NCBI GenBank assembly: GCA_030141605.1
Contig: JAQGDQ010000005.1
Span: 434,001 to 498,000 of the forward strand
DNA length: 64,000 bases
Direction: 5' to 3'
From: Tubiluchus corallicola
Lineage: Eukaryota > Priapulida > Priapulimorpha > Priapulimorphida > Tubiluchidae
A program made the position numbers and the translations under genes. The notes under the pieces were generated by a model that ran no database searches, had not been told where the DNA came from, and saw only the letters and a program-made list of their open reading frames with translations. The stretch's first letter is position 1, and the number at the start of each line of letters is the position of its first letter. This document shows positions 55 through 64,000 of the stretch, in pieces.

Positions 55-2800
55 GAACTCAGAACTAAGTTAAGTCGAATTCAACTTAATGAAGCATAAG
101 GTGTGCTAGGCAATCTAGCTGGTAATGATATTTTCCTGCTCTTTATTTTTGCATACAATGGACAGTTTTGTTTATTTATTATGCAAACAATTGACTGATT
201 CATTCCTATGAAACATTTTCAATGGGGCCAGGTTTTCCAGTGTTAATTATATGGGTCACCTGTTACTGCTGCATATAATTCTAAAACAAATTTTAATCAG
301 AAACACCTATTAGTTCTTAATGAAATTTTTAATTTATTAATAATTTCTTTAAAGCTAAATAAAAAGAATAAACAAAGGTATGCATCACAGTTAACTGAGT
401 AATAATTATACGTTCAGTTTATGATCTTGGTTTCAGGATAAAGCATATTAATTTTCACTTTTTTGCATGTCACCCTGCATGTACACCCTGTTGTACTTAT
501 GAGATATCGGCCATAACATTTGTTACGAAGTCATCAAATGTTTGCCAGTAAAATTCTCTTTCATAAAGAGCCTTCTTAGTTTATTTCTGTTTCAACTTCG
601 ACCCCAGAAAATAACAACACAAAGTAATTTCTAAAATAAAACTCTATGTCAATGCACCCACAATGGCACATCGCAGAAGTTAGAGGTTTTGATCTATATT
701 GCATATATACTATATACACTTTCATTACAAAAAGCTTTGTGTAATGAAATACTTTGTTAACACTAATAAAAAATTAATGAATTGAGTACTGTAACTGAAA
801 AACCTTTGCAGACGGTGATAATTTTTCATTCGTTGATTAACAGTACATTATGTGCTAACTTTCACACACATTTATTAAAAAGCATTTAATCCCAAACATA
901 GCCGCATTTTTTATGTGTATCGGCACACTGCAAGCAGGAATTCAGCACACAGTGACATAGCCTACTAGGCGATACAGTTGCAGTGAGTGCAAAACTGAAC
1001 TCATTAACAAGGGTAATCACCTGAGTAAGACAATGGACCAGTAGGGATGCGGCACACAGATGCTTCAGCTGTGTTTGAATTAGTATACTACCTCCTCCAA
1101 TGAGAGAAGTTGTCGGAAACCGAATCCATGTGCTAACCAAACTCAACATTGTTTTACTTCCACAACAGCGACCACTCAGTTGTTATCACATCCCACCATA
1201 GATGGCAATACAAATAAATGATGTGAGTCATATAACCACAATAAATATAGCAACTTTAACTTTTAACGCATATAAATACTTTTATTACTTTACAAATTAG
1301 CCAGTATTTCAAAGAACATTAATCAAGTTTTTTTGTCACAACCAGCAAAGGTAAATCTCATATAAACATCTCACCACACTCTAAAAATGAGCAAACAGAA
1401 ATTTATACGATTGAGTTCAATTAATAATTTTTTATGTAAATCGGAGAAAAATTAAAGAAGAACACATTAAACAATAAACATGCCCTAACTAGTTAAATGC
1501 AATTTCATACAACTAGCTACACATTGGAATTTATGTTGTAGATTAACATAACCAATAATCACAGGGGGATTAGAAGGTTTACCTGAAATATTATTTGACA
1601 GTATGGAAGCAATGGGTGTAACAAGCCAAATAGAATTCCTACCAGATGTCTACTGTTATGATCTTTATATGGAGTATTTTAACAACAATAGATATAATTT
1701 TCCATTACATAATAATACAGCATATGCACCGTATACATTATTATCCCCAGAATAAACAAATATGAAGGCAACCTGAAGGAAACAGTGTTGTCAAATTTAT
1801 GCTTATGAAATGCCAAAAATAAGATTCAGGTAAGACAACCACTACAATACCACAATAAATGGACGGTTCACATTAGCACTTTTACGAATTCTTTTGTGAA
1901 CACAGTTCATTTTCCAGATTTTTGGCTTTTTGCAAATACCAAATTTTACCAAGAAAATGCTGTTTACCAGAAATAGCTTGTTTCACTAATTGAAACTTAG
2001 TAGCAAAAAAAAACAGCTACAAAGAATTCTGAAAAAAAAACAAGATGTGCTAAATACTGCAGTATGTTGATATGGTTATCATTAACAACACTATTACACA
2101 AATAAAATTAAAAGAACATACAATTACCATAAAGATCAGATACTAACAAGTAATTTTATAGATGACTTTTACAGCATATTCACTGTTTGATAAATACCAC
2201 AAAATTTTTAAAAGTGCTATATATATGTACAAATAATAACAAAGCTCTAGTTAAAATTGCGCAAATTGCAAGCACTGCTTAAAGATTAAAGTACGCAGAA
2301 AAAATACTACAATGGCAGTTTGAAGCTAAGCAAAATCACATATTTAAAACCTAACGTTCCCATTCACAGGTAGTTTAGTTCCCATTACACAGAACATTAT
2401 TCCAGAAACATACTAATACCAGCAAGACACCATTGGACCTAGCTACATAGGCATATCAAATACTAAGTAGCATATAAACAAAAAGTTACAAATCCAGTAT
2501 CACAAACAATAAAGCAAAATTTGAAACATGATGAAACATCTATGATCTCACAACAAGTGTGTAGAACAAGTTGCATATTCTCGAAATTTTAGTTGAAATA
2601 GAATTACTGCTAATATATACAAATTATTAGCTTGAAAGCAATAAACTGTAAAGCTGCACAATACACTGAATACAGCCAATTTCTTGCTGATACATGTAAA
2701 GCACATTTTATAAAAATATATTCATCAAAACATTGAAAGGCACAGAAAAAACGTCCTTTGCAACACAGACAATAACATAATGATGAAATCTAACTAAAAA
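55..2800. other. Intergenic region downstream of the EPB41L5-like gene
   Basis: AT-rich sequence with many short A and T runs. Short open frames (for example 886-1149) show no recognisable motif or low-complexity protein pattern. I see no supported gene here. Confidence 0.5.
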
Positions 2801-2819
2801 TTCCACAAAAATATACAAT

Positions 2820-2825
2820 TTTATT
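2820..2825 (-). terminator. Candidate poly(A) signal of the EPB41L5-like gene
   Basis: AATAAA on the minus strand, about 220 nt past the TGA stop. It is the first canonical hexamer found downstream of the stop. It implies a short 3' UTR ending near 2.8 kb. Not tested against transcript data. Confidence 0.45.
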
Positions 2826-3042
2826 AGAATAAATGAATAAAGGTGGAATATATAATCCTACAACTAATTTATGACATAACCTCACAGATTATAAACTGCA
2901 ACAGCACTCATATATATATAAATTTATAGGAATGTCATAACCAATTTAAACTAAATTAGCATGTACAATATTAATAAAAGTATTCATTTGACATGAGGAA
3001 TGGTTACACTTTCCACGAAAACAAACCATAAAAATTCTCTGG

Positions 3043-6000
3043 TCAAATTTCTGTGATAATAACTCGCCTTTCCACAGTCTGAGCTCCAATGGCAGAAGTA
3101 GGCCGACTTGGTTCTTCCTTGACATCGTCAACTAGCCATGGAGATAACACGGCCTTTTCTTTCTTCACAGATAGCTTTAATGGTTTCACAGATTGGTTAA
3201 CTGGTTGCGCTGTTGGCTCAATGTTGCTACTTGAACTAGCGGATGACGTTGAACGACTGACATTACTGTTATTATCACCTCCATCTTGAGCCACTCTTGC
3301 AGTTGCATGTGACTAACAGGAAGACAAAATTCATAATTATTATTCTGTGGTTGATTCAACTTATCAAATGCCTGCAATAACAAAGTTACATAGCCATGCT
3401 AGCCGAAATGATGAAATGTTTTACTTAAACATTATTTTACTTAAACAAATAAATATAATCAAGTACTAATAGTAACAACTTATTTCTTAATAATATTAGT
3501 CAATGTATGCACAACTAATAAACGTTCTAACAAAATTTGTATAGCGTCTGAGACTGAGTAGATTTCTTATTTTGTTGTTATCATTAATTGATTGATATAA
3601 TAAGTTGTAAATTCATGAAATATGCCAAGTTTACAAAGTCAACAAGGGATCTGGCCAGAATTCTGAGGTGCAGAATTCTTGGATTTGAAGCATAGGTCAA
3701 CGAAATAAAAGAGGAACCAAGTTACAATACAGTTAAAAACACCAAGCAAGGTAAAATTGTAATATTTCTACTAGTGGTAATAGAAGCACTAGATTTGTTT
3801 ATCAAAACTTGATAACAAAGCTAAAGTTGCTTAAACAAATAGAGCTATACTAAGTTATACCTTTGGTGACAGTTGTGCATCACTAGAAGAACTTCGATAG
3901 CCATTAGCGAGAGGGCTCTTTGATCGAGTTAAGGAGTTTTGCAACACATTTGTAGACGAATTAGGAATATTTTGCGCAGTTTCTACAGTCTCCTGGTCAA
4001 CTTCCAATTCTAAAATTTCACTGTAAAAAAATAAAAATATTTAATGCAGCAACATTAAATATTTTCAAAACTAAAATACCAGTACAGTAAATTTATGTAA
4101 TGCAAAACAACGGATTAGGCAAGACTGCTTAGGACAGGGGTCCCCAAACTTTTTAGACAATTGATCCCTTCATGGTGTCATTAATTTCTCATCGACACCC
4201 AGGCAATGCAGGCATGTACAAAAAAGAAATATTAATAATAATTAAGTAGATGCGCAGTTTCGATAAACCAAGCCCTGCAAAACTATTGTTCTGTATCCCC
4301 TCCGCCGCTGCGAACATCTCTCATGAAATATAGGGAAATAAAAGGGAAAAACTGTTTACTGTTATTGTAGAAATCATAAGCAATGTACAAAATATTGAAT
4401 ATAATGTTGGAAATCAACATAAAAGTGTTCAAACTTATTTAAATACTGTAAACACATAATGATAAATGAATATGTCGCACGAAATATGGCCCCAGTGTTT
4501 ATCGACCTCTTGGATAGTCCCATTCGACCCTCAGGCTACAATATCGACCACTTTGAAGACCCCTGGCTTAGGATAAAAATAAGCACATTTTAGATGTACA
4601 ACGAAGCTTCAAACTATAGAACAATATAGGTGCAGTTAGAACCAAAACAAATCCCACAATGTAGTTCATCTATATCACATCCTGTAGATATACATCAGTA
4701 TGAAAAGAGCATAATTTCGGTTAAAGTGCTTCACATGCACTAACAAGACATGAAGTCAACGAATAGATTTTACTTTTAAGTATAAATTTCTGCATATCTC
4801 AAAAGCAAATGATCGAAATTATACCAATTTTCCATGTCACACATTAAGATTTATGTTACACATTTAACAGGATTGGGTAATGAATACGAAAATCGTATTG
4901 CGACACTTTCTTGTATTGCCATACGTATTGCGATATATTGCTATTTTATAATAAACAAGTTTAAATAAGTAGGACTAATTTCAAATCACTGTATTACCTT
5001 ACTCAAGTAAACTCAAATAAGACTGATTTTAAAGTCCTATTTTTTCTGGATTTCAGATCACTCTAACTGGATGACAAGTTTCCATATATTGCCAGTTCAT
5101 TATTACACATAATAATGCTATATGAAAATTAAATTCGAAGAAAAAAATTAAATAATGTTACTGCTGTTAATGTTTTCTACATATTTGTTTAAAAAGGTTT
5201 GACTGCCAGTCCACTTTTACAAAGGTCAAATGTGCATTATAATACGTGAGGTCCATCTTCCAATCATTCTACTTTACATCTGATTTGAGTTTTTGTTACA
5301 GTTTTCATCATTATCAACTATTTTCCGTGCAGCTTTTTCAGTCTACTGTGTGTCCAAGAAAATTCAAAGAGAATTACTCAAAACTTAAAAAATGAAAGCT
5401 ACGTATGCCATCCACAAAATGGGTGCAAACTAGAGAGACCACAACAGTGACTGATAAGTAGCACATATTACTGGCTGCCATGCAGGCAGTAATCTAGTTA
5501 CGAGTCAGTTGTAGATAGGAGTGCCTGAGTGACTCATACATGACAAAAACCTAAAAGCATGCTTAAAATCTGTGTCCAATAAAATTCGCAAAACTGATTT
5601 ATCGAGACTGCACGCTAAAAAAATCTGTGCCCAACATGCAAGTCAGACACATTTTGTATAGTATGTTACCTGTATTACAGGCAGAAAATTGCATGGTGTT
5701 AATTATTATTCCTTACATTGAAATCATTTTACTCGACAGTTATTTACATAGCAGTTTGGTTAAGCTATTTACCAATTAATTTCATTATTATATGGAATTA
5801 ATTAGCCCCTTGGCACACAGGGTACCTCAGAAGTCAGTACACACTTTACATTTTTTATAATTGTCCGCAAATGAAGAAAAACGTTTAAGAACAGATAGAT
5901 GAACTAAAACCTAGGCAATTTTTTTTAGTCAAATTAGGTGAAAATATGAAAAACTACTGCATTAGTGGACTTCACTATTTTTGCTACTTTCATCAGTGAC

Positions 6001-49330: not shown

Positions 49331-50030
49331 TTTTTTTATTTATTTAACATTTTACTTAATACAAAACATACTTTACAAATTACAAAAACCAAGACATTTA
49401 CAATAACGTAAACAAATATTAGCATTAACTGACTGTCAATGAATGAATGAATGCAATTAGTTGCAATCAGTAAATATGCATTGACTACGCTCTAGCAATT
49501 TTGGATGTTCAGTAAATCACTAGAATATATGTTTCAAAGGTTACCAACTAGCTTCAACTTTTTCTAGCATCCTAAGGTTGTCACCTGCATATTTCTCCAC
49601 CTTATACATATATTTAATACAGCTCACTGCATTATTAAAATTTAGTGTTGTCACCTGCATATTTCTCCACCTTATACATATATTTAATACAGCTCACTGC
49701 ATTATTAAAATTTAGTGTTTGTAATTTTCTTCGAGTACACCAAATACAATATTTTACTATTAAAACGGTCTTATTTAAACATGGAAATTTTTTATACGGA
49801 AACTATCCAAAAATTACAATAGATTTATCAATTTCCAGTGCATTACTTGTACTTTGCACCCACCATTGTTTGAAATGTTCCCTTATGAGTTTTACTTTAT
49901 TACAAGCCCACTGTATATGTAATATGGTTTCTGTTTCCGAATTGCAAAAATTACAAGTGTCAGAATCAACTTTATTGATTTTGAATAGAAATTTTTTGTG
50001 GTAGTATTCTGTGCAGAACACTAAACTGAT
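49331..50030 (-). mobile_element. Non-LTR retrotransposon 3' fragment (zf-RVT-type C-terminus)
   Basis: A 72-residue minus-strand frame carries CNFCNSETETILHIQWACNK, the CxxC...H...C zinc-binding motif after the reverse transcriptase of L1-like LINEs. After an in-frame TAG near 49800 the same frame continues with VLIVKYCIWCTRRK, typical of the family tail, so the stop is a mutation. A 70-bp tandem duplication shifts the frame further on. A T-run at about 49329-49340 is consistent with the 3' tail in minus orientation. Confidence 0.7.
49577..49716. repeat. 70-bp tandem duplication inside the LINE fragment
   Basis: Two identical-looking 70-bp units (49577-49646, 49647-49716) containing TCACCTGCATATTTCTCCAC. 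The length is not a multiple of three, so it breaks the LINE frame. Confidence 0.88.
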
Positions 50031-50660
50031 AACTGCACATTTTAGTGAAATTGTTTTTCGTGTACTTAATGCACTTTTAACAGCCTAATGAAAAATTCTG
50101 TATGAACAGCGTGTTTGCTGATCATCTGAAGGCTACGCGCACTGCACGGACTCGGGTAATTTCCCAGTATTATTATGTTACTAAGAAACGTAATATTATG
50201 TTACTATTATTATCTGTTACTAAGAAACGAAACCAAAACTACTTTTTACCTGTGTGAACGTGTCGCTCAGCATTCCATTTCCACTGCGTGGTAACAAGTG
50301 TTTTGGCTTGATGTGGTGACTTGTAAAAATTGCAAGTCTGCGACGTATAAAATCTAGAGAAAAAACTCAAGATATACTTCCTAAGCCTTAAAGGTATGTT
50401 TTCGACTTCTTGTCAAAAATCATAAATTTGATGTTTTTCAGGTTGATTTCATTTTGCAGCGGTGTTGTAACTTAGAAGCCAACATAATGTGCTCACAGTG
50501 ATATGACTCATTGACTGCTTGTACTTTACCATGCTTTGAGCATTCAGCTGTGTACCATGTAGCGAAAAGTTATTGTTTTGCCTATGAACAAGAGACGCGT
50601 TACAGAAAGTGAAACTTTTTGAGCAGCTAAATTTAACTCTTATACGTTTCTGAGAAAATT

Positions 50661-53600
50661 ATGCAGACCGGAAACTTTGGTGACAATGTTATGTCGCCTC
50701 TCTACATTTTGGGCTCACATTTTGCTCAAATACTGCAGCATTATCCAAATGGTTTGACGCCAGACTTGCTACGTGCAGAGTACAGAATAGTATTTAAGAG
50801 AGACGTAGATCCAACACAATATGATTTTGATGATTTGCATGAACTATTGGAGTGCTATTCGTGGATGTTGGATCTAGTTCATGGAAAGCAATCGGATGAA
50901 TCCCATTCACCTGCTACTGTTAAATTGAAAACCGACGTTGCGTTAGAGTTGTATGGAGAAAACCTTGATGCTTTTGGTGCTGTATCCAATCCCGAACATC
51001 CTGTCAAAGGTGATTTTTGCATTAAATGAATGGATTTTTCTTATAATAAAGTGGAACAAGAGATATATGGCTTTACCTTCTACTTCTTATTTTTTGTGCA
51101 AGACAAGAATCTTTAATTTTCTAATTTTATAATATGCAAACTTTTCTGCAGACAGCTGCAAAAAATCATTATGACCCATGATTTTAAATACGGTGTATCA
51201 TAATCGAAATGTTGTTTTTTAGCCTGCCTAAGGTAATTGAAAACGCATCGCACCTGTTGCTTGCATCTGCTTGCCAAAAAAATTTTAAAACGAAGTTTTA
51301 GATGCAACTTAATTGTTCGTGAGCAAAACTTTACTTACCTGCAGGGCCGGCTTTAGGTAGTTTGACACCCTAGTCCGGAGTATTTTTAGCGCCCCCTCAA
51401 GTGTCAACCCCTTCTCCATAGTCAACATAACGCGATCCCCCAAAATTGAATTGTTCTTGCATAATGCTGTAATAAAGTATTACACTTACACATGTAGTAT
51501 AATGCACTAATTAAGTGCAGTTAATTATCTATCTAGAGGTTGTGTTGATTGAATTTGAAATTTAACTTATGACTTCGCACGTCCAGGTCGTCAGGAGCAA
51601 TCAAAATTTCTGCAATTTCTACTAAATTTGAGTAGATTTTCCCTCAGTCTTTCCATTATGTATTTATTTATTTATTTATTTTGATATTCTCTCTCTTTTT
51701 TACCTATACGTCCATCTCATTATTTTCGTCATCTTCACAACATCCTAACTCTGCTCTGGTTGCAAATATTTCATTAAAGATTCTTTTGTTGTTCAGTGTC
51801 ACCACACGCCAGCTTTTTGCCTTTCGTTTCCTGTAAGAACTTTTTTATTAACAAAAAGATCATTACTCACTTCTTAGCTCTACTGTTCTAGCAGTGTCTG
51901 AGCGAAATGAGATAGCAGAAGTTCAAATTCTTTTTTTTGTGGGAAGGCACTTGTTAGCCTCGATGAATCATATATTTTTGACAGGAAAATAACAAAAGTA
52001 GTTTGTTTCCTTTAATTAAAGTCTTGTGCACTTAAGCAATTACACACATTATGTATTACTTACACTATATCTAAAAATTAAAGAATTACTTTAAGAATTT
52101 GCTACCCCTAAAATTTTGCACCTTAGACAACAGCGTAGTTTGCCTAGTTGTACAGCTGGCCCTGTTTACTTATGTTACTCTGATATCCATGCACCTCATT
52201 CAAAACCTTTTGCCAAAAAGTCATATTTCCTGTAGTCTAGTCTATAGTTTGCTTATTTATTGCTTTCTAGCCTACTCTGTACATATAAATTGCTTTTTCA
52301 ATTGAGGAAGTTTAGTTTTGCATTGTACCATTTGTCTGGAGTCATTTTATGAAATTTCTGAATCACCCTTGCTCCCAGCCACTCTGGAAGTGGGATAAGA
52401 ACCAGTGGGATTAAGTTACTAGTACAGCAGAGTAATTTTCTTGTTTATGAACATAGTTCCCATAAGTTTATTTCTGGTTTCGATGTAATGTTATCATAAT
52501 ACAATATATATGAAATTTTATTAAAAGTCCATTATGTAAACATTTCAGATCTATGTCATAATGTACTTTGTTCAGATCTATAGTTGTGGTTGTTGGTTGT
52601 TGCCAGACTAATTACCCACAGCATTATGTTGATCAAAAGTCAGCTGAGTTTATTTTAAAGTGTTAACGTATAAATTTGCTGACATACGCACTACCTTATG
52701 CATGAACAAGTTTAATAAAAGAGAGTGTGTTTGGGTTGCTTAAATACGATGGCATAATAAACAGTGAATGTATTTAGTGCCATCTGTATGTCATATATAG
52801 ATATATATTCTTTATCACATAGTTGAGACTGTACGTGAAGCAACAAAGAGGAAGTTGGAAATGTCTAGTTCCGATGAAGATGAAAACATCTTGCTTCAGA
52901 AGAGGGAAAAGGTTGAAAAAGGTTTGTCAAGTTTAAGATACATAACAATTCTGTGGTTAGTTTGTTAATTTTTAACTGTACTTATCTCTGCATTTTGCCT
53001 TTTCTTCTTCCTGGTTAATGATATTAAAAAACTTGGCATTAGATTAACTGGCATTCAGAAAGATTGTACTATATGTCCTATGCTGTAATTATTCATCATA
53101 CTATTCATTATTAGTTCATTCATGAATTGGCTCTATGCTTTCTTCCTAAATTAAAAGCATATGTTTAGTCTTTAACCTGAGGTGTCCAGAAGCAGTGTCA
53201 TGATGTTTTTCATTATCATCTGAAGGATTTCCTTAACAGCAAACTGCAGTTAAAACATCACAGTTACACATGATGATCAATTGAGTTTTTCTAAAAAAAA
53301 GTCCAAACACGAGCAGAGAAAAAAGGAACACAGCAGTGCAAGCTACCACTGAAGTTCTTCTTCAGATAAACAAAAAGGAAAGACAGAAAGAGAAAAAAAA
53401 TCAAGGGAGTACTAGAACTAGTAATATTTGGAGTTTTTTTATTTATATTATTAATATGTAAAAAGGATATCACACTAAAAGGATGTGAGCACATAGAAAA
53501 AAACGCATGCACAGCAGATAAGAATGAAAGACAGAAGTATAAAACCATTTAGCCATGATCATAGAACAGGATGGGACACAACAGGGACCCTGGCTTATAT

Positions 53601-56600
53601 ATGGGAAAAACTTGTCAAACCAGTGGGGTAGAATGTAAACAGAATACAGCATATGGAGTTGGAGTGAATGACGAAAGAGCAAAACTGTATAGAGTGATTA
53701 ATCAGAAGAAAGGTTTGAACACAATACAAGCAATCCATGAGATGAGAGGAGAGGAGAACTTGAAAGAGGACCACGTAGTAACATAATATAGACTATGTTA
53801 TAGAAGTCCGACTTTGAGCAAAGCCCACATGATATAAAATTAACAATCATTTGAAAAAGTTGACTATCAGTGCAGTTAAAATTTTGCTAACTTTAGATGG
53901 TCCTTTTATAATATAAATACATAACATGAACTTAGTAATGTAAGGTCTTAAGACTACACATGCTGGCGAGGTCAGATATTGCGGGCATTTTGCTGGTAGT
54001 ACTGGTGGTACTATGCGGTCGCTAGTAGTGTCTTTATGTTATTAAGGTGGACCGTTTAAATTTACCTAAATTTTAACAGTATCCATAGTTTTCAAATAAT
54101 CTGTTGATACCATGTTGCTCTGCTTGAAGCGCTAGAAAAGCCTGACTTTGCTAGCTTATAAAATTATGTAGTCTTAAATTTAATTTAATTTTTACACAGT
54201 CAGCTTTTTCAAATAATTTAAAATGACTTAATAGTAATAATTAGTAATACTTAATAATAGTAAGCCTTAACACTTCAACAAGTATGTACGCCAAAAAGAA
54301 CAAGAACAACAACAGTTAAGTTTGGATGACAATCTTGGCACCTATGGTGCCAAGTAATATAGAGAATAGGAGGGAAATGGAGCGTTAGGGCCATTTTTTG
54401 TCTCAGTGTACACGTTTTATTTGTTTTGTCAAAAACTCTTTAAAACAGAACCCTAGATGGCAAGACGTGTCATATGTTATTCTTGAACAGTGATTGATGT
54501 TTTAAAATTGCAGGTGCATACTACGAGCCCCTGGTTGAAAATTCTGACTTGCGTCATCATGTTGGAGCTATGCTGTGTCATTTGATGACCACCTTTGTCT
54601 GTGGCATAAGCATAAAAAAACTGTTCGCTCACTTTAAAGATGAGTACAGACAAGAAATTCCAATAAAACAAATGGGCTATGAGAGCAAGTTGGAATTTAT
54701 ATCTCAGTTTGCTCCAGTTTTAAATGTAATCAAGAAAGCAGGCAACAACTCTGTGATAAAGATGAATAGGAATGAAACCACAGCAAAATACAGCTCAAGC
54801 ATTCATCAAAAGTCGTGGAAGGAATTGAACAAAGTGCTTATCAAAAACACTTGTGAGAAGCTGCGTGAGTTGCAGAAATTGCCTGCAAATTCTAAAACCA
54901 AAGAACTTCAGGGTGATAATAATATGGCATGTGCTGGTTCTGTTGTTAATGGTGTCGGCTCATCTAAGAGACTATCTTCCTCTGCTATGGAAAAAAGTGA
55001 AACTGATAGTGATTGTTATATTGTTGGTACAGTGCCTGCAAACGAAGCTAGCAAATTGCAGCCATCCACAGCTGCAACTACTGATCAGAAAGTGATGTCT
55101 CAACAAAGTCAGCAGAACCTGGGCATTACCAACCAATTTAATGCACACTCAAACCAAATGTTGAAACACATGGAGCACAAGTCAACTATTGATACTTTTT
55201 CTGGATGCTCTTCACAAAATCCTGTGTTACCACCACGCTTTCAAGGTTGTTTAGCAAATGCTGGTCCCATTCCATTGTTGTCACTGCCAATACGACATCC
55301 AGAACCATTTATCAATATAAACCAACCGTGCAGACCTAGTTTAGACAGTGGCAGGTTTAATCTACAAGGAGATTCTTGTCTTTCAGATTACAAGTTAAGT
55401 TTTCCTCCGTGCGGTGGGTCAAAAAAATTTTCTGAACCAGAAGGTAATATGAAACAACTTGCAGATTTTGATCAGCCTTTAATAGAAAATGCTAGTCGTT
55501 GCACAGCCAGAACCAAAGAACAAGTAAACAACATTGCTCAGTTTTGCATAGATAGGCTAGCAGAGCTGAACGAATTTGTAAGCTTTTCAGCAATAGAAAA
55601 ACTTCTCTGTCGGGAGCTAAAAATAAACAATGTGGTTGATTTGCGATTGGGGCTACGAAGATTTGACGATCTTGACTGTATTCAACAGCATTTGCGAACA
55701 CAGCGTAGAGTAAATGCATGTGTTCAAGCATTTGTGAAAGTGAGAAACATTTGCACTTTGTTTGAACTTAATGAAAGTTTAGGCGATTATGTGCCCAATA
55801 AAATGGCCTTCGAAACCCTTAAACTTGGTCCTTTGACACGACAACCAATTTTGTATGATATCTTTAAGATTCCGAGTGATATGACTGACATCTTGCCAAT
55901 AAGAACAGCAGATGTATATGAACATCTTCGTAACTACCTGTCTAGAAATGACTTGTGGACGCAGAAGATTGATATGGAGAAATTCATGGAGTATTTAGTT
56001 GAAGTGTATGGTGTAAAAAGTCCATACTATCTAGGAATTAGAATCACTAGTGGAGCTCTAATGATACAACAACTTAAAAAAGCTCAGCGAGATTGTGGCA
56101 GTTGTGTCAGATCAACAAAGGCAGAGCTAATGCAAAATACAGAGAAAAAGCTAACAACAGCATTCCGTCAATTCTGTGAACAGCTTCTAATCGAGGAAAA
56201 TGGCACTTGTAAAATAAAGTCACACTTTGCTCAGTTTGATGCCATGTCTGTTGTTCAGCAGTTTGCCAATGTTTTTAAAGCACTATACGACACTCTCCAT
56301 TTAGCACATCTCATGTCGCAGCCAGGAAACACAGAGGAAAGACACTGGCGGCATGTGGGAGAGGTAATGAAGTTCATGGCTGCGGTGAAAAAGTTGCCTA
56401 TTTTTGCACAGTTGTTTCAGTTGGCACTGATAGTTTGTGCCGATGTTGGAACAGCTACAGGTTACTGTAACCATGTTTTAGAAGTGTTGGCTAATGTTAT
56501 GCCTGCTAGATTAGTCACATCACATGAAATACCTGCTGATTTGGATGTGAAATCTTTGGGACCAGAAGTATCTACAGGTATATTTTATTTGTTTTTTATT

Positions 56601-59425
56601 TTACTTTATCACGTCTTAAATTTTTGAAAAATGACTTGCGAAATTGTTTGTTTTATGCCTAAAATCTGTGTTTGCATTTGCTCTTTTTCTGCAAACATCT
56701 TTTTGTGCCTTTATTTTTAATTTATATTGTTTGCAGTTTGTTTAGCTCTGATAAGTGATGAGTGAGTGATGATGGTTATATTGTGAGATAGAACAACTAT
56801 CAAAACTGTAGAATGGGGGAGGGCAGGTTTTCGTGATTTGTCAACACATATCTTCAGCTAAGTTGGAAATTGGCTATTTGCTTTGCTAATTTTATTAATC
56901 AGTAGAAATGTTCTTTCCTTATAATATATCTCTGTTGGTATTTTATTATTAGTTTTCACTTATTTAGATGAGGTTATTGCCAAGGTAAAAGAATATCTAC
57001 ACAAGTGTTTAATTGCTGGTTCATTGACTCTAACTCATCTGCACAAAATAGAAACTAAGCTCAACAAAGATTATGATGTTAACCATTTTGGCTTACTGAG
57101 GCATGGGAGCTTTTTGGAATTCTTAACAAATCCAGCTATAAAACCGGTATTTGAACTTCTTTTTTACACATGAACCGTTTGAACTGAGATGGAAAGAAGC
57201 TAAACAGCACTTCCCCAAAGGACGGGAAAGTTTTGTTTGATTCTGGTTTCTGCAATATCATTAATTTTTAACTAAATGCAAAACCATCTTATGTTCATAT
57301 TTTAAATATAAAAACATATGTTATTGTTAGTTTACTACCTTATTATAATAGTTAGGCTGTAACTTGTAATATAGTAATATAGTATATAGTTGTGTAGTAA
57401 TTTTCAGCCTTGTGGTTTTTATATATAATGTTTTCGAATTGTCTTGTTAGTTGTAATGGATTGCAGACGTAAGTTTGAATACTAGGCATACATTGTAGTA
57501 CCTGATATGTGACCACCTTTAATTTTTGAAATTATAAAAGCTTTATTTTACGTGTTCGCACACTTGAGCTTTCTACGTGAGTTATCAGTGCTTGTGCTTA
57601 ACTTTGCCGGTCATCGTTTTTTTCCAAATGCTTTGCATAATTTATTTTTATTTTGTGTTAGGTTTTGGAAGAAAGTGTTGGGCAAACATTGGGGAGTGGT
57701 AAAGTTACTACGCGTAGCCTTTACTGTCCATCACGTCATGAACTCGTTGAATTTTTAACTCAGTGCAGAACTATTGGCATGTCTCAGGCAAGTTATTGCA
57801 TTTGGAATTTATAAAAGAATGTGAAAGCTTTAGTTGCTACAGGACTAAAGCAGGTAAAGAGGTAAGGTCAATTTGCTGTTGGAGTTGTTAATTTTCTAGT
57901 CTTGCGCTGTTTGCTAAATCTCACTAACATATCTGGCACATTATCTAACACAACGCACATAACATATAGAGAAATGTAATTATAATGTATAATCTTCTTG
58001 TGATGCATATGTGCATATTGTGTGATATTCATTCTAGGATAACACTGAATACACGGCCTGTGAGTTCTTCAAAGTTAAAGAAATAAAAGACTTTGGACAT
58101 GGTTCACTAAGTCACCTTTTACAAATTGCTGATAAGAGAGTGAAAGACTCTAAGACATTTCCAATAATCTTTGAAAAGCCTCTTTGTGATAACAGTCCGT
58201 AGGTATTTTGATGATAATCTTTTCTTGCATTAAGTTTGCTCATTAGTTGTAATTATATTAGTGTAACAACACATATAAATGGAGATGTTCAATTGAGTTA
58301 CTCTGAATATTTACTGTACTGAGTTTTGCAAATTGAAAGCTGTTTCCTTCACCTATTATAACACATCTCATTTGTTATAACAGTAGTTGTAAACCTTGTC
58401 TTCCTTAACAAGAGTATGCTTATATATATATATTATGTTTATTCGCATATAAATATCAGTTTACATGCTTAGTGTAATAAAAACATATTACATAACAATA
58501 ACAAAAGGTAAGTAATTAGCATGTGCATTCAGTTAGTTACAAGGGTTAGTAACATGGATATTACTTTTTTATTAGTAAAGCCGGGTATATAAAATTCATT
58601 ACGAGCAGTCCAATATAAAACATAGGAGACAACATCACAGTCATTATAATGATCATTCGTAAAATCTATTGCATAAAACAGGATGCGATTTTTCCCTAGT
58701 GATATGCAGTGATGGGCCTGTGCTCACATAATTTCTTTACATTTTCAAATTACTGCTATGGCAAATATATCAGTTAGGTTTACAAAAATGTATGTGTGTT
58801 TGCAAGATTAGCTCTAGTAGATAAGGAGCCTTTGAACATTGATAGCTGTTGATGATACACTTTTACTGGAATTGCATGATAACCAGTTGCTATTATTTGC
58901 TGTCGAAAGGCTTTGACAACGTAATAAATAATCTTAAATTAGTCACTATATTTTTTGTTTGTCCTTTTAATTTTAGGGTGAACAAAAGTAAATGAATGAA
59001 ATTCTTGCTTTTATAATATGTGTAATATGTACAAGCATGCATTCTATACCAACTGAGAATGTCCCAAAGCAACAGGCTATCATTTACATTGCAATTCCTT
59101 CCAAAACTGTTGCAGTTGGAATAAACAGCGTAACATTGTGATGCATATCTAGTAACCAATGTCTAATAACAAATGAATACTAAGCATTTATAAATAATGG
59201 AACAAAAGGCTTGTATGTACTTACATATATAGATCAACGCTGAATCTCGACATTCACGCCACGACAAGTAGATATTTTTTATGTCGCCTAGACTGTTCTG
59301 CCCTGAATGGTGGCTACTGAATGGGCATTCGTTTTTTAAAAATTCATTTCTGTCCGAGATATGAGGGAAGGGAAGTGAGGTGTTGGGTGAGGAGGAGATA
59401 GAAGAGAGAGGGGGAGGAAGTGAGG

Positions 59426-59473
<48 letters not shown>

Positions 59474-61262
59474 ACTAGGAGTCCATGATTTTGCATGTAT
59501 TGGTACCCAGGTAATTAAGCATTTTTCAAAAAATGGGCATAGCCAGGTCGTGTGATACGAGTGAAATGTTGAAATTGGATCAGAGTCCCAGAAATTGGCA
59601 ATGGCACCTTCACTTCTAGGTCAAAGGTCACAGTAATAGGAGCTGTAATGTGAAAATTAGCTTAAATGGATTTGTCATTCAGCTGCTCTTACAGTATGAC
59701 TGCGAGCATATATTTTGGCATGTTTGGGGAGCCAAGTAAGAGTAGATGTGCATTAAGTATTTTTCGGAAAGGAGGCTTGGCCAAGTCAAGATAAATGGAC
59801 AAAAGTGTTAAAATAGCATTTTGTCAATGACTTTGAAAAAAGGATCAAGGTCAGCAAACATTTTCCAGTTCCTAGTACAAACACTTTGCAGACTCAGGCA
59901 ATCATATTGCGTGCTCATGTTATCATTCCAGTTCATTCTAGCAGTCTAATCAGTCTAATACTGTCTAGCAGCAAGCCAGCAACAGTTAATGCACTCGGAA
60001 TGTGAATTTCAAACTAAATCATAAATAGAAAAATAGCGGCCAGTACCATGTCAATGCAATAAATAATAGTGACAGTTAATTTATTGAACTAGACAGTAAT
60101 CTATTCTGCTTGTGCCACCACTTGTATCTACATCACTTAAACAGAATAACTTTGCTTAGTTAGAGTCGTGTAAATGTAACTGAGTTTGATAAGCATGGCA
60201 GCCTTAAACGTAATTGTCATTATTAATAAAACATTTGACACTCTAATTACTATTCACACTAGAATTGTATATAAATATTGAACAGGTGCATTTTTTTTGT
60301 TTTTAGGTGCAAATTTACAGGAAAAACTGGCATACTCGGGCATCAGTCGGAACAAGCTGCTGTTTCCTGCTTAAGAGCTTGTCCACTACTATTTGACATG
60401 GATGAATGGTCTATGTGGGCGTACATTTTTGCTCCACAGTTTGGAACGCTAAAAGAGTTTGTAACGAAACATGGTTCTGTAGCAGTAGTACCTGGCAAGT
60501 AATATGCAAGAATTTATATTTTTTAAATATGGTTCCAACTGTCTTTATACAGTGAGTCACCAGAATTAATATGTGTCTGGAGTGTAATACTCCCAATATG
60601 GTTCCAACTGTCTTTATACAGTGAGTCACCAGAATTAATATGTGTCTGGAGTGTAATACTCCCAATTATAAATTTAGGTAACTGTCTTGCAACGAATGGA
60701 AATTCATCATTTTTTCGTTATTATTTGCACCGAAGATTTTAGAACTCTCACTTCAGTCAGATTATTTTAACAAACGTCTTTACCATTCATTTATTTTTAA
60801 GCCACTCTAAACAGTTTAACTTTTATTTTATGGACTAACATATCAGTTAGTTAAATTATTCCATAAAATAAAATTAAACTATTTAGACTGCCCTTTAAAA
60901 ATGAATGAATGGTAAAGACTTTTTAAAATAAAGTCTAACTTATAGATGATAAGGCACAAGACTGCTGTTTCTTTTATAACTTATTTAGATTTGTCTATAC
61001 TATATAGGTCACAGTGATTCAGAAAATGGAAATTTGCTTGCTTTGGAAGTAGATTCTGGCCGACTACTAAAGCTTCCTTCAACCACAAGTCTTTCTCATT
61101 TTTGTGAAGCTGTTAAACAACGGGATGTTACTTCTACATGTGCTCACCTTGTGTCCTTAGTTGTGCATTACAAAGGAATAAAGTCAACGCCACTTATGTT
61201 ACTATGTAATGCAGTACAAGACAGTATGCAGACTCTACTAAATAATGTGCAAAACAATGCAG
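50661..61262 (+). CDS. Multi-LOTUS (OST-HTH) protein, 5' part; 3' end outside the window
   Basis: Eight coding exons with matching phases: 50661-51009, 52823-52921, 54514-56577, 56968-57146, 57662-57787, 58038-58198, 60307-60494, 61008-61262. Together they give 1140 codons with no stop. An in-frame TAA lies about 27 nt upstream of the ATG. Residues about 12-75 (HFAQILQHYPNGLTPDLL...YDFDDLHELLE) fit the LOTUS winged-helix pattern. So do residues 160-232 (MLCHLMTTFVCGISIKKL...MGYESKLEFISQF). Looser copies lie at about 615-675 and 838-900 (YLHKCLIAGSLTLTHLHKIE...HFGLLRHGSFLEFL). A Ser/Gln-rich linker spans about 233-475. LOTUS domains bind G-rich or structured RNA, or the helicase Vasa, in germ-granule proteins (TDRD5, TDRD7, MARF1, Oskar). 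No Tudor or NYN domain is seen in this part. Large invertebrate NO VEIN-like proteins are another possible family. Introns 5 and 7 use GC donors. Confidence 0.75.
51338..52164. mobile_element. hAT-like element, about 827 bp, with 8-bp target duplication
   Basis: The left end is CCTGCAGGGCCGGCTTTAGG and the right end, in reverse, is CAGGGCCAGCTGTACAAC. TTTACTTA flanks both sides (51330-51337, 52165-52172). CAGGGCCGGC is a common hAT terminus. An extra CCTG at the left is unexplained. The interior has no transposase. In intron 1 of the LOTUS gene. Confidence 0.75.
52922..54513. other. Intron 2 of the LOTUS gene, no element identified
   Basis: Purine-rich and pyrimidine-rich tracts around 53290-53470. 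Open frames at 53291-53786 have low-complexity translations and no recognised motif. Confidence 0.45.
58540..58730 (-). mobile_element. Possible retroelement coding remnant
   Basis: Minus-strand translation gives a continuous stretch including RILFYAIDFTNDHYNDCDVV and YVLYWTARNEFYIPGFTNKK. This looks protein-derived and resembles C-terminal regions of non-LTR elements, but I cannot place it in a family. It lies in intron 6 of the LOTUS gene. Confidence 0.25.
59398..59470. repeat. (AG)n microsatellite with G tract
   Basis: GA/GGA-rich sequence leading into about 20 AG units and a G8 run. In intron 6 of the LOTUS gene. Confidence 0.9.
59480..59880. repeat. Dispersed repeat, copy B
   Basis: Shares TCATTCAGCTGCTCTTACAG, AGTAGATGTGCATTAAGTAT and TTTTTCGGAAAGGAGGC with copy A at 46790-47300 (substitutions only in these blocks). 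Intronic in the LOTUS gene. Confidence 0.65.
60527..60664. repeat. 69-bp tandem duplication
   Basis: Two apparently identical 69-bp units (60527-60595, 60596-60664) containing TGGTTCCAACTGTCTTTATA. They start 32 bp after the GC splice donor of exon 7 of the LOTUS gene. The in-phase length yields a repeated 23-residue open frame on the minus strand that is not a gene. Confidence 0.88.
60763..60930. repeat. Foldback (hairpin) repeat, about 165 bp
   Basis: The left arm (about 60774-60845) contains GTCTTTACCATTCATTTATT and TTTAACTTTTATTTTATGGA. The right arm (about 60848-60922) is its inverted copy (AATGAATGGTAAAGAC, CCATAAAATAAAATTAAA). There is almost no loop. Probably a miniature foldback element, in the intron before exon 8 of the LOTUS gene. 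Confidence 0.8.
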
Positions 61263-61409
61263 GTGCGCACTTATATGTAATTCTACTCTGTTTCATTTTA
61301 TTATTCGTAAACGTTAGCATCAGGGATCTAGGAGAACCCATATGCTATCATTTTATTATGTTAAGCATCCAGTTTTCTACTGTTCAGTTCATATTAACTC
61401 GCAAATGCA

Positions 61410-62760
61410 CGTAAGTATTTAAGTAATGTGGGTAGATGTGTACCTGGGCTTTTAAGAAAGTTGAAATTCTCTAAGAGTCCGAGGCAGGAACCAAAATATG
61501 TAACACTGAATAACTCTAAAACTGTAGTAAGTGGAGTCACGTAACTTGCAGGGACGACAACTAAGATAGGGGCTCAGACAATTGTGTGGTTAAAAAGCTG
61601 GTATTGTCTAAGGACTCGAGTTAGGAGCTAAAATGCGAAATCAGGCAAATTAGTTTTAATTCCTGTTAACTTGCAAACGAAGAAAGCTATGGTCATGAAA
61701 TTTGCAGGGTAGGCACCTGGGGTAGGGGCTTTAAAAATGGTGTGGTGGAACAATGACCTCAGTCAACGGGTCAAGGACATTGGATATTGGTCAGTAATTC
61801 GATTTCCATTCACCCCACTTCTCTTACTGTTTTGAATTAAATTTAATTATTTTCATAAGTATTTAGGTATTGTGCGATAGATGTATAACAAGGCTTTGAA
61901 AAAGCTAGGATTCTTTCAAGGTCTGAGACAAGAACCAAATTGCATAACATTGAACAACTCTGCAACTGTGGTAACTAGAGTCATGAAACTTTCAGGGTAG
62001 AAACCTAGGCCAGAGGCTCAGGCAATGGTGTAGGGTATGGTATAGTTCCAAAGTTGGAATTTTTTAAGGACATGAGACAGAAACCAGAATGTGCAAATTT
62101 GAGCATCCAGTTTTAATTCATGTTAACTCGCAAATGCAGAGTAGATACCTGTGGTAGGAACCTTGAAGATGGTGTGGTGACTTATGACCTTGGTCGAAGG
62201 GTCAAGAACCCTGAACACTCCATCAATTTTTCTATTGTCATTCAAGTCAGCCAAAGACTTTGAGTTCCATTCAAAATATTTTTCACAAGTATTGAGGTAT
62301 TGTGATGTACTTGTGTATGTAGGCTTTTAAAAAGCTGTGGTTCTTTAGAGACCCAAATAGATGCAAAAGTGCATGCTGATGACGTGATGAGTAAGTCTAA
62401 AATTATAGTAGTTAGAGTCACAAAAGCTGTAGGGTAGACACCTGGAGTAGGTGCTTCTACTAACATGTGGTTAGAAAACTTGGAATTATTTAATGGCCCA
62501 AGATAGAAACAAATTGTGAAAATTGGGGTATTGAGTTTTAATTCATGCTAACTTGTGAATCCAGAGCGTTATAGTCATGAAATTTGCAGTGCAGATATCT
62601 GGGATGGCAGTGCCTTAAAGCTGAGCAGTGATGTCAATCAAGGGGCCAAAGGCACAGGATATCAGTCAGTTTTTAAGTGTCATTAACTCCTTCTGGGCCT
62701 TCGTGTAAAATTCATTTATTTCGTAAGCATTTAGTTGTTGTGGGTTAATAATCTATTATC
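61410..62760. repeat. Diverged tandem array, unit about 435 bp, three-plus copies
   Basis: Unit starts recur at about 61417, 61859, 62290 and 62727 with the phrase GTATTTAGGTATTGTG. Each is followed by a GGCTTT(T/G)AAAAAGCT block, an AACTCTAAAACTGTAGTAA block and a TCATGAAATTTGCAGGGTAG block repeated within the unit. Copies differ by many substitutions. No coding potential. It lies 3' of the last visible exon of the LOTUS gene and is related to dispersed copies A and B. Confidence 0.75.
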
Positions 62761-64000
62761 ACTGATTCAAACCAAGAATATTAGGCTTTTTTGACTGTTA
62801 TTACGCTTTAGCTTAATGAAATTTGGCCAGTGTTTAGGAAGGATAAGTGGCATTACTGACTGTGAATAAGACCCCGTAATCTTGTACTATTTGGCCCTCA
62901 GTGTAGCCCTCATTAATAAAATAAAGCCCGAGTGAAAATAGTGAAAATAAAGCCCTCACTATATCATTACCCCTTTTTTCATAAATTTGAACCATATATA
63001 AAGTCTTAAGAAATGCCAACCCATTTCCACTGGACTTAATGACTCAGTGACTAGCTAGGCCAGAAACTGATAATTGTTGGATGTTGGCCAGGCCATGTGT
63101 CTGGGGAACTTAAGTCAAACTTTCAAAATTAGCAAAGCTTATAGCACCATCCAAAAAAGGAAATGTTCTTTGGGTAAAAACTAAGCACAGTTTCTGAAAG
63201 GGTGTTTCTTTGTCTGCCAACTATCTTCTGTCCTTTTGAAAAAGCTTGTAACTTAATATGACGTTCTTGGGTTCATAACTCGGATGGCTTGACCATTGTT
63301 GACCAGTGGTTATAGGACCTGGAAGCCATTTGATCTTCTTACATGCACACTGAATTTGGTCAAGTACGGCTTTCTTGTTTTTATTTATTAAAAAAAAGTC
63401 TGAGTCTTGGAAAATAACCATCATTGAACCAAAAGAATGCCATGTTCTGAATGCTTACATTTTGGGTACGTACATCACCATTTTGTGTAGCTAAACAAAA
63501 CCCGACTTGCAATTTTGACAGAGTGCATTTGATTACACATTTCACGGAACATATCTGTAGGAATTATGGCTTCCATTTACAAATATCATTCCATTTACAA
63601 TATTAAGTATAGTAAAGGTTTTAAGTGTGGAAAAAGTGCCTAACCATGGCAACCCTTCTTAGGTGGCTGTTGTGTGGCGCATCGTTAGATAAACAATTGA
63701 TTGGACTGTTATCACTATTTTGGCAGATGGTGTTTCTGTGATGAGACAGGGCTTACCAAAAGGTACGGGACTGACGTGGGTATAAAAAAGAGCCGTAGTA
63801 TGGCAACCCTATGTGAGTGGCAGTTGTGTGACACCTCGTGGGATAGAGAGTTGATCGCAGTATCACCACCATATACAGTACATCAGTTTAAATGTGTATT
63901 GTACTATTTCTAATAACTACTGGCAAAATGATAGACTGACGAAATGATATACTGGCAAAGTGCAGCTCTGTTTATGTATTGTACTATTTCTAATTGCTAC
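62760..64000. other. Right end of window, presumed intron of the LOTUS gene
   Basis: No further exon with a matching phase was recognised. A diverged direct repeat of about 150 bp starts near 63632 and 63785 (shared ATGGCAACCCT and AGTTGTGTG/TGTTGTGTG blocks). The phrase TGTATTGTACTATTTCTAAT occurs near 63895 and at 63976. Confidence 0.4.

What the first reader, a model, noticed from the sequence alone, without database searches (positions are those of the whole stretch)
50661..64000. Large multi-LOTUS protein of unclear family, cut by the window end
Eight exons join in phase into 1140 codons with at least two good and two weaker LOTUS-like winged-helix modules, plus a long unrecognised region (about residues 480-830). 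Known animal LOTUS proteins combine the fold with Tudor, NYN or helicase parts, none of which is visible so far. Four modules with this spacing would be unusual outside MARF1. The C-terminal partner domain, outside the window, decides what this is.
Basis: partly seen in the sequence, partly recalled or inferred. Interest (0 to 1): 0.75.

Follow-up and report, generated by a model that had tools for sequence, protein, structure and literature searches.

The report
Animal LOTUS and NO VEIN protein
The gene cut by the window end continues into a giant animal protein that joins small LOTUS modules, known from RNA granules, to an ATPase-plus-nuclease body related end to end to proteins filed as bacterial anti-phage defences, which makes a nearly unstudied protein family testable.

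Summary
The eight exons are there and join in phase into exactly 1140 codons. I followed the gene 28 kb past the window: a hand-built model has 40 exons and 3127 codons without a stop. The missing partner is a NO VEIN-type body: a sacsin/Hsp90-like ATPase (Pfam SACS 46.5 bits; P_loop_sacsin 68 bits) and a C-terminal NOV_C domain (61.3 bits). Residues about 1359-3110 match one PADLOC TmtA profile (recalled: Tiamat, an anti-phage system) in one stretch over positions 5-1285 of 1302, 464.8 bits. Residues typical of the ATPase and of a PD-(D/E)xK-like site are kept. LOTUS module 1 passes Pfam's cut-off; module 2 is supported by a profile made here and by a modest fold match; the two weak modules are not supported. 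Pfam shows no Tudor, NYN or helicase domain. NOV_C was found only here in this genome. My reading: a LOTUS-bearing animal NO VEIN protein in which RNA binding licenses an ATP-gated nuclease. Identity is well supported; mechanism and immune role are inferred. Without transcripts, that exons 1-8 and 9-40 are one gene is probable, not shown.

The parts
50661..51009 (+). exon 1, residues 1-116, with LOTUS module 1
   Evidence: open frame and GT donor; Pfam OST-HTH on residues 23-72
50727..50876 (+). LOTUS module 1, residues 23-72
   Evidence: 24.7 bits, cut-off 23.8; home-made profile above all scored shuffles
52823..52921 (+). exon 2, residues 117-149
   Evidence: AG/GT, in phase; its acceptor is weak by my own matrix
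   Evidence: 709-codon stop-free run; AG/GT, in phase
54537..54791 (+). LOTUS module 2, residues 158-242 (profile match 174-222)
   Evidence: home-made profile; TDRD5 fold match Z 8.3
55503..56555 (+). unrecognised region, residues 480-830
   Evidence: no Pfam match to the whole 1140-residue piece at E<=5 other than OST-HTH; one piece has a sub-threshold DHC_N2 match, E 0.049
56968..57146 (+). exon 4, residues 838-897; weak LOTUS-like stretch, not supported
57662..57787 (+). exon 5, residues 898-939, GC donor
58038..58198 (+). exon 6, residues 940-992; weak LOTUS-like stretch, not supported; weak donor
60307..60494 (+). exon 7, residues 993-1055, GC donor
61008..61262 (+). exon 8, residues 1056-1140, last exon inside the window; exons 9-40 follow at C177:498831-526058

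Best explanation
One animal gene encodes a 3127-residue NO VEIN-family protein. From the N terminus: an arm of about 1345 residues with two LOTUS winged-helix modules and otherwise no recognised domain, a GHKL (Hsp90/sacsin-like) ATPase (about 1400-1560), a long sacsin-like body, and a C-terminal NOV_C domain with a PD-(D/E)xK-like nuclease motif (about 3003-3110). The part from ATPase to NOV_C is a full-length relative of prokaryotic TmtA proteins, which begin close before the ATPase; the LOTUS arm is what they lack. Proposed mechanism, inferred: the LOTUS modules bind structured or G-rich RNA and place the protein on RNP granules or foreign RNA; binding drives ATP-dependent closure or dimerisation of the ATPase, as in Hsp90-like enzymes; closure licenses the nuclease to cut nucleic acid nearby. 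Shown: architecture by profiles, homology, kept catalytic-type residues. Inferred: RNA binding, ATP gating, cutting, and a role against foreign or selfish nucleic acid.
For: OST-HTH, SACS and NOV_C are the only Pfam families in the whole protein and each passes its cut-off. P_loop_sacsin 68 bits. TmtA profile 464.8 bits in one stretch over 5-1285 of 1302. An HMM of 16 prokaryotic relatives covers residues 1354-2848 (606.5 bits) and 3012-3112 (40.4 bits), across my exon junctions. E1411, N1415, D1418, G1474, G1477 and G1479 identical in 75 of 75 aligned ATPase stretches; D3043 and K3063 in 20 of 20, E3007 in 19 and E3061 in 14 of 20 NOV_C stretches. LOTUS 2 profile and fold. Minimal LOTUS domains bind G-quadruplex RNA according to PMC8331183 (passage).
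Against: No transcript joins exon 8 to exon 9. LOTUS 1 is barely over the Pfam cut-off and LOTUS 2 has no Pfam match. Only 20 of 73 prokaryotic ORFs could be aligned in the NOV_C part. The TmtA label is not specific: the sacsin-like gene of the same genome also matches TmtA profiles, up to 313 bits. Residues about 243-1345 have no recognised domain. No function of any part was tested, and no animal relative could be searched.
Confidence: 0.5

Rival explanations
1. Two neighbouring genes: a LOTUS gene (exons 1-8) and a separate NO VEIN gene that starts at Met 1142 in exon 9.
For: Intron 8 is the longest of the model (3568 bases). Exon 9 has an in-frame ATG as its second codon. The prokaryotic relatives start close to the ATPase. 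Within intron 8, 20 of 235 GTs score at least as high as the donor used. Sites were chosen by hand.
Against: Exon 8 has no stop before its donor, the phases agree (1 in 3 by chance), the acceptor of exon 9 is beaten by only 2 of 217 AGs of the intron, and both sites are ordinary for this gene (ranks 10 and 27 of 39 from the weakest; matrix made from my own model).
Confidence: 0.17
2. The LOTUS modules dock a DEAD-box helicase such as Vasa, and the protein is a germ-granule scaffold or chaperone in which the nuclease matters little.
For: Extended LOTUS domains bind and stimulate Vasa (PMC5458760, passages). In 3 of 3 tested neighbours of the closest Pseudomonadota/Acidobacteriota relatives the next gene encodes a NERD nuclease-helicase, so a helicase partner would have a parallel.
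Against: The C-terminal extension needed for Vasa binding is not seen by sequence: 642 of 1000 and 782 of 1000 shuffles score as high (a weak test). The nuclease-type residues are kept.
Confidence: 0.13
3. A developmental protein like plant NO VEIN, working as an ATP-dependent chaperone or nuclear factor without cutting nucleic acid and without a role in immunity.
For: NO VEIN was named for a developmental role in Arabidopsis (cited in PMC12289216, passage). Single NOV_C gene in this genome, unlike many expanded immune families.
Against: Nuclease-type residues kept; relatives are filed as anti-phage proteins.
Confidence: 0.17
4. A diverged sacsin paralogue.
For: Pfam SACS match; sacsin also matches TmtA profiles.
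Against: A sacsin-like gene lies on C1476 (SACS 258 and 242.9 bits in one 3721-residue frame); the window protein has NOV_C, found only here in this genome; Pfam found neither DnaJ nor HEPN in it. The 16-protein HMM breaks a 1513-residue piece of the C1476 gene into five pieces of at most 59.9 bits, against one of 606.5 bits here.
Confidence: 0.03

Closest known systems
Protein NO VEIN family (plants; an animal homologue is named wu:fj29h11, recalled as a zebrafish gene)
   Same: Sacsin-like ATPase and NOV_C at the C terminus
   Different: Two LOTUS modules in front; whether other animal NO VEIN proteins have them could not be tested. PMC12690905 says that no metazoan homologue has been characterised (passages)
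TmtA, PADLOC name, recalled as the protein of the anti-phage system Tiamat
   Same: One stretch over profile positions 5-1285 of 1302; ATPase and NOV_C residues kept
   Different: Prokaryotic proteins start within about 40-200 residues of the ATPase match (19 ORFs) and showed no LOTUS match; 40 exons here
MARF1 (limkain b1)
   Same: More than one LOTUS module
   Different: No NYN or RRM by Pfam
TDRD5/TDRD7
   Same: LOTUS; module 2 is nearest to TDRD5 in the PDB
   Different: No Tudor by Pfam; no extended-LOTUS signal
Sacsin
   Same: SACS domain
   Different: NOV_C in place of DnaJ and HEPN; a separate sacsin-like gene exists

Membership tests
LOTUS/OST-HTH proteins | at least one OST-HTH domain over the family cut-off | tested here: met
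   24.7 bits, cut-off 23.8; module 2 only by home-made profile
LOTUS/OST-HTH proteins | extended (Vasa-binding) C-terminal helix | tested here: inconclusive
   no similarity above shuffles to the extensions of two LOTUS genes of this genome; sequence test only
Protein NO VEIN | NOV_C domain at the C terminus | tested here: met
   61.3 bits, cut-off 22.1, residues 3007-3106 of 3127
Protein NO VEIN | sacsin/Hsp90-like ATPase upstream of NOV_C | tested here: met
   SACS 46.5 bits; P_loop_sacsin 68 bits, cut-off 50
Protein NO VEIN | orthology to plant NO VEIN | not testable with these tools
   no plant or named animal proteomes held
TmtA (Tiamat) | full-length match to a TmtA profile, ATPase to nuclease | tested here: met
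   464.8 bits, 5-1285 of 1302, one stretch; the tool gives no curated cut-off, and a sacsin-like control matches TmtA profiles in part
TmtA (Tiamat) | protects cells from viruses | not testable with these tools
   needs experiment
MARF1 | NYN domain and RRM with LOTUS modules | tested here: not met
   neither in the Pfam scan of the whole protein at E<=5
TDRD5/TDRD7 | Tudor domains | tested here: not met
   none in the Pfam scan of the whole protein at E<=5
Sacsin | repeated SACS units with DnaJ and HEPN | tested here: not met
   one SACS match in two stretches, no DnaJ or HEPN; separate sacsin-like gene at C1476

The most novel reading that the evidence does not exclude
An animal has kept a whole prokaryotic-type anti-viral machine (TmtA/Tiamat, ATPase to nuclease) and put RNA-recognising LOTUS modules in front of it, giving an RNA-directed, ATP-gated nuclease that polices viral or transposon RNA, perhaps in germ granules.
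Probability: 0.22. Interest if true: 0.88.

Novelty: new variant of a known kind. Interest (0 to 1): 0.62.

Why it matters
NO VEIN proteins are close to unstudied in animals (PMC12690905, passages) and Tiamat's mechanism is listed as unknown (PMC10482375 and PMC12926258, passages). An animal protein that is colinear with TmtA and carries a LOTUS arm gives both fields a concrete hypothesis, RNA or RNP recognition controlling an ATP-gated nuclease, and named residues to test. No paper found in the searches links the two.

Tried and rejected
MARF1 or TDRD identity: rejected, no NYN, RRM or Tudor by Pfam. Sacsin paralogue: rejected. Third and fourth LOTUS modules: not supported. A fifth candidate of my own at 995-1085: 168 of 300 shuffles as high. 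Extended-LOTUS reading: no sequence support; two control stretches scored better than either module. ATPase and NOV_C against PDB sequences: best E 0.77 (Hsp90) and 0.86 (sacsin) for the first, 0.59 (an OTU protein, taken as chance) for the second. LOTUS region against PDB sequences: TDRD5 at E 0.5. Fold match lists of module 2 also hold unrelated helical folds at Z 5.8 and 5.7, and the tool warns that helical models reach high Z by chance. Viral contigs: six relatives of the ATPase, 28-35% identical, not studied beyond the ORF count and the tree. Profile of nine LOTUS domains (seven of other loci plus modules 1 and 2) against forward-frame ORFs over 150 residues of the 86 prokaryotic and viral loci: no hit at E<=0.01. 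Paralogues of exons 1-3 in this genome: only a chance-like hit, E 0.025 with a stop.

Literature (10 searches): 'NO VEIN' with 'LOTUS domain' 0 papers; 'LOTUS domain' with 'sacsin' 0; any two of Tiamat, NO VEIN, sacsin and OST-HTH 2 papers, whose passages that I saw do not make the link. Only open-licence PMC papers are held, so this does not show absence from print, and public protein databases, where such fusions may already sit, could not be searched. The 2009 Arabidopsis NO VEIN paper is not held.

Full report
The genome has 92 wnt matches, so I take it for an animal; its phylum was not determined.

Checking the observation. Exon 3 sits in a 709-codon stop-free run, against 147 codons at most in the 32,014 intron bases of my model. 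Codon usage of codons 1-837 agrees with the downstream core (correlation 0.89; 200 intron pieces: mean 0.53, max 0.62). Pfam finds OST-HTH at residues 23-72 just over its cut-off (24.7 against 23.8); the genome-wide search with PF12872 at E<=0.001 lists seven matches on four other contigs and not this one. The second module is missed by Pfam, also as a separate piece. A profile built from those seven domains (letters) gives its best window 19.5 bits and that of module 1 12.5; of 1510 shuffled windows 1132 returned a score, the best 6.2. A low-confidence model of module 2 (pLDDT 61) has two LOTUS structures, TDRD5 and Tejas, as its top matches, at E 1.1 and 5.2 and Z 8.3 and 7.6; unrelated folds follow at Z 5.8 and 5.7, so this is support, not proof.

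Extending the gene. With 29 kb of downstream sequence a hand-built model runs through 40 exons to a stop at C177:526058, 3127 codons, no internal stop. All 39 introns end in AG; 37 donors are GT and two GC. Because sites were chosen by hand to keep the frame, openness alone is weak evidence. Support for the core comes from prokaryotic proteins, which know nothing of my splice sites: an HMM of 16 of them covers residues 1354-2848 (606.5 bits) and 3012-3112 (40.4 bits). Weak sites by a matrix made from the model itself are the donors of introns 6, 28 and 33 and the acceptors of introns 1 and 15; these junctions may shift. Exons 1-10 and the stretch of about 2849-3000 have no outside support apart from the LOTUS modules.

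What the partner is. Pfam scans of the whole protein in three pieces give three families: OST-HTH, SACS (46.5 bits, cut-off 32.8) and NOV_C (61.3 bits, cut-off 22.1). NCBIfam gives P_loop_sacsin, 68 bits, cut-off 50 (residues 1141-2000 only). In this genome NOV_C was found only at this gene, and the nearest other match to the ATPase is a separate sacsin-like gene on C1476, E 0.066; the tool says that missing matches do not show absence.

Prokaryotic relatives. A scan of genome contigs with the ATPase (residues 1400-1515) found 240 relatives; the best 80 were kept, at 32-59% identity. Of 86 loci (80 prokaryotic, 6 viral contigs), 73 gave an ORF that matches the core. In the 19 ORFs laid out the ATPase match starts 41-200 residues from the ORF's start, and no LOTUS match at E<=0.01 was found in the loci's forward ORFs. 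PADLOC calls five of five tested TmtA and gives the animal core 464.8 bits to TmtA PDLC03972 in a single stretch, residues 1359-3110, over 5-1285 of 1302. That TmtA is the protein of Tiamat is recalled; PADLOC's output has no description. As a control, a 1513-residue piece of the sacsin-like gene also matches TmtA profiles, 313 bits for the best, but its best stretch there covers profile 15-353 of 1370, and my 16-protein HMM breaks it into five pieces of at most 59.9 bits. So the label is shared with sacsin in the ATPase part; the colinear match through to NOV_C sets this gene apart. In a 70-row tree of the ATPase region the animal row lies in a supported group of 13 (98/97) with Pseudomonadota, Acidobacteriota, Cyanobacteriota, Spirochaetota and a Thermococcus bin; its place inside is open (89/31) and the root is by midpoint. 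Direction and time of any transfer cannot be read from this without other eukaryotes.

Catalytic residues. In 75 aligned prokaryotic and viral ATPase stretches from 73 ORFs, E1411, N1415, D1418, G1474, G1477 and G1479 are identical in all 75. In the NOV_C part 20 of the 73 ORFs could be aligned; there D3043 and K3063 are identical in 20, E3007 in 19 and E3061 in 14. Reading these as the N- and G2-boxes of a GHKL ATPase and a PD-(D/E)xK-like site rests on recalled motifs; PMC3710099 calls DUF3883 (recalled as the earlier name of NOV_C) a novel REase domain (passage).

Neighbours. I listed ORFs around eight close relatives and tested ten neighbours from seven of these loci. In the Pseudomonadota/Acidobacteriota group the gene just downstream is a NERD nuclease-helicase in 3 of 3 tested (L008, L010, L018); L011 has an ORF of like size there, untested. 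L012 has an RmuC gene downstream, L008 a UvrD-type helicase and L010 an integrase upstream. The single neighbours tested at L015, L017 and L024 and the upstream one at L018 matched no PADLOC model.

How it may work. Minimal LOTUS domains bind G-quadruplex RNA, and extended ones bind and stimulate Vasa (PMC8331183 and PMC5458760, passages). The extension is not seen here, which weakly favours RNA over Vasa. A GHKL-type ATPase, a long sacsin-like body and a kept nuclease motif then suggest recognition, ATP-driven closure, and cutting; all three steps are inference. Plant material gives a parallel: a metagenome study found all Tiamat hits of its plant-associated samples on plant sequences (PMC12409356, passages); I suspect that these are plant NO VEIN genes, which the passages do not say. 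In an acanthocephalan the NO VEIN-like transcript is female-biased (PMC12690905, passages), a weak hint at the germ line.

Novelty. NO VEIN-like genes are known from plants and have been named in animals; PMC12690905 states that no metazoan homologue has been characterised, while PMC12289216 calls NO VEIN plant-specific (passage). The OST-HTH survey of 2010 (PMC2848206, three of four parts read; word search of the text without hits for HSP90, ATPase or DUF3883) does not mention such a fusion in its text; its figure and supplement were not seen. I rate it a new variant of a known kind, with the caveat that protein databases may already hold such fusions.

Noticed in passing
L003:3096-3326 (+), inside intron 34 of the model (C177:520096-520326): A stop-bounded 77-codon stretch with a partial BTB/POZ domain (34.7 bits, cut-off 20.5) that my model skips; perhaps a nested or broken copy of another gene.
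   Followed up: partly
G000 contigs C2, C14, C457, C628, C1781, C1850, C2066, C2159, C2185, C2200, C2228, C2254, C2271: A wnt exon with the same score (91.3 bits) appears on 13 contigs: repeated haplotigs, an assembly artefact or a real spread duplication.
   Followed up: no
window about 60529-60666: Two copies, 69 bases apart, of the same stretch stand head to tail just after exon 7 (read by eye).
   Followed up: no
window 49803-50081 (-): Fragment with a sub-threshold zf-RVT match (18.3 bits, cut-off 27.5), just upstream of the gene: probably a piece of a retroelement.
   Followed up: partly
L008:14569-16275, L010:14608-16338, L018:5524-7236: In close prokaryotic relatives a NERD nuclease-helicase gene directly follows TmtA; it may be a second gene of the system.
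   Followed up: partly
L005 about 1791-2638 (C106): Between two LOTUS exons of another gene lies a repeat array that is open in a frame on each strand.
   Followed up: no
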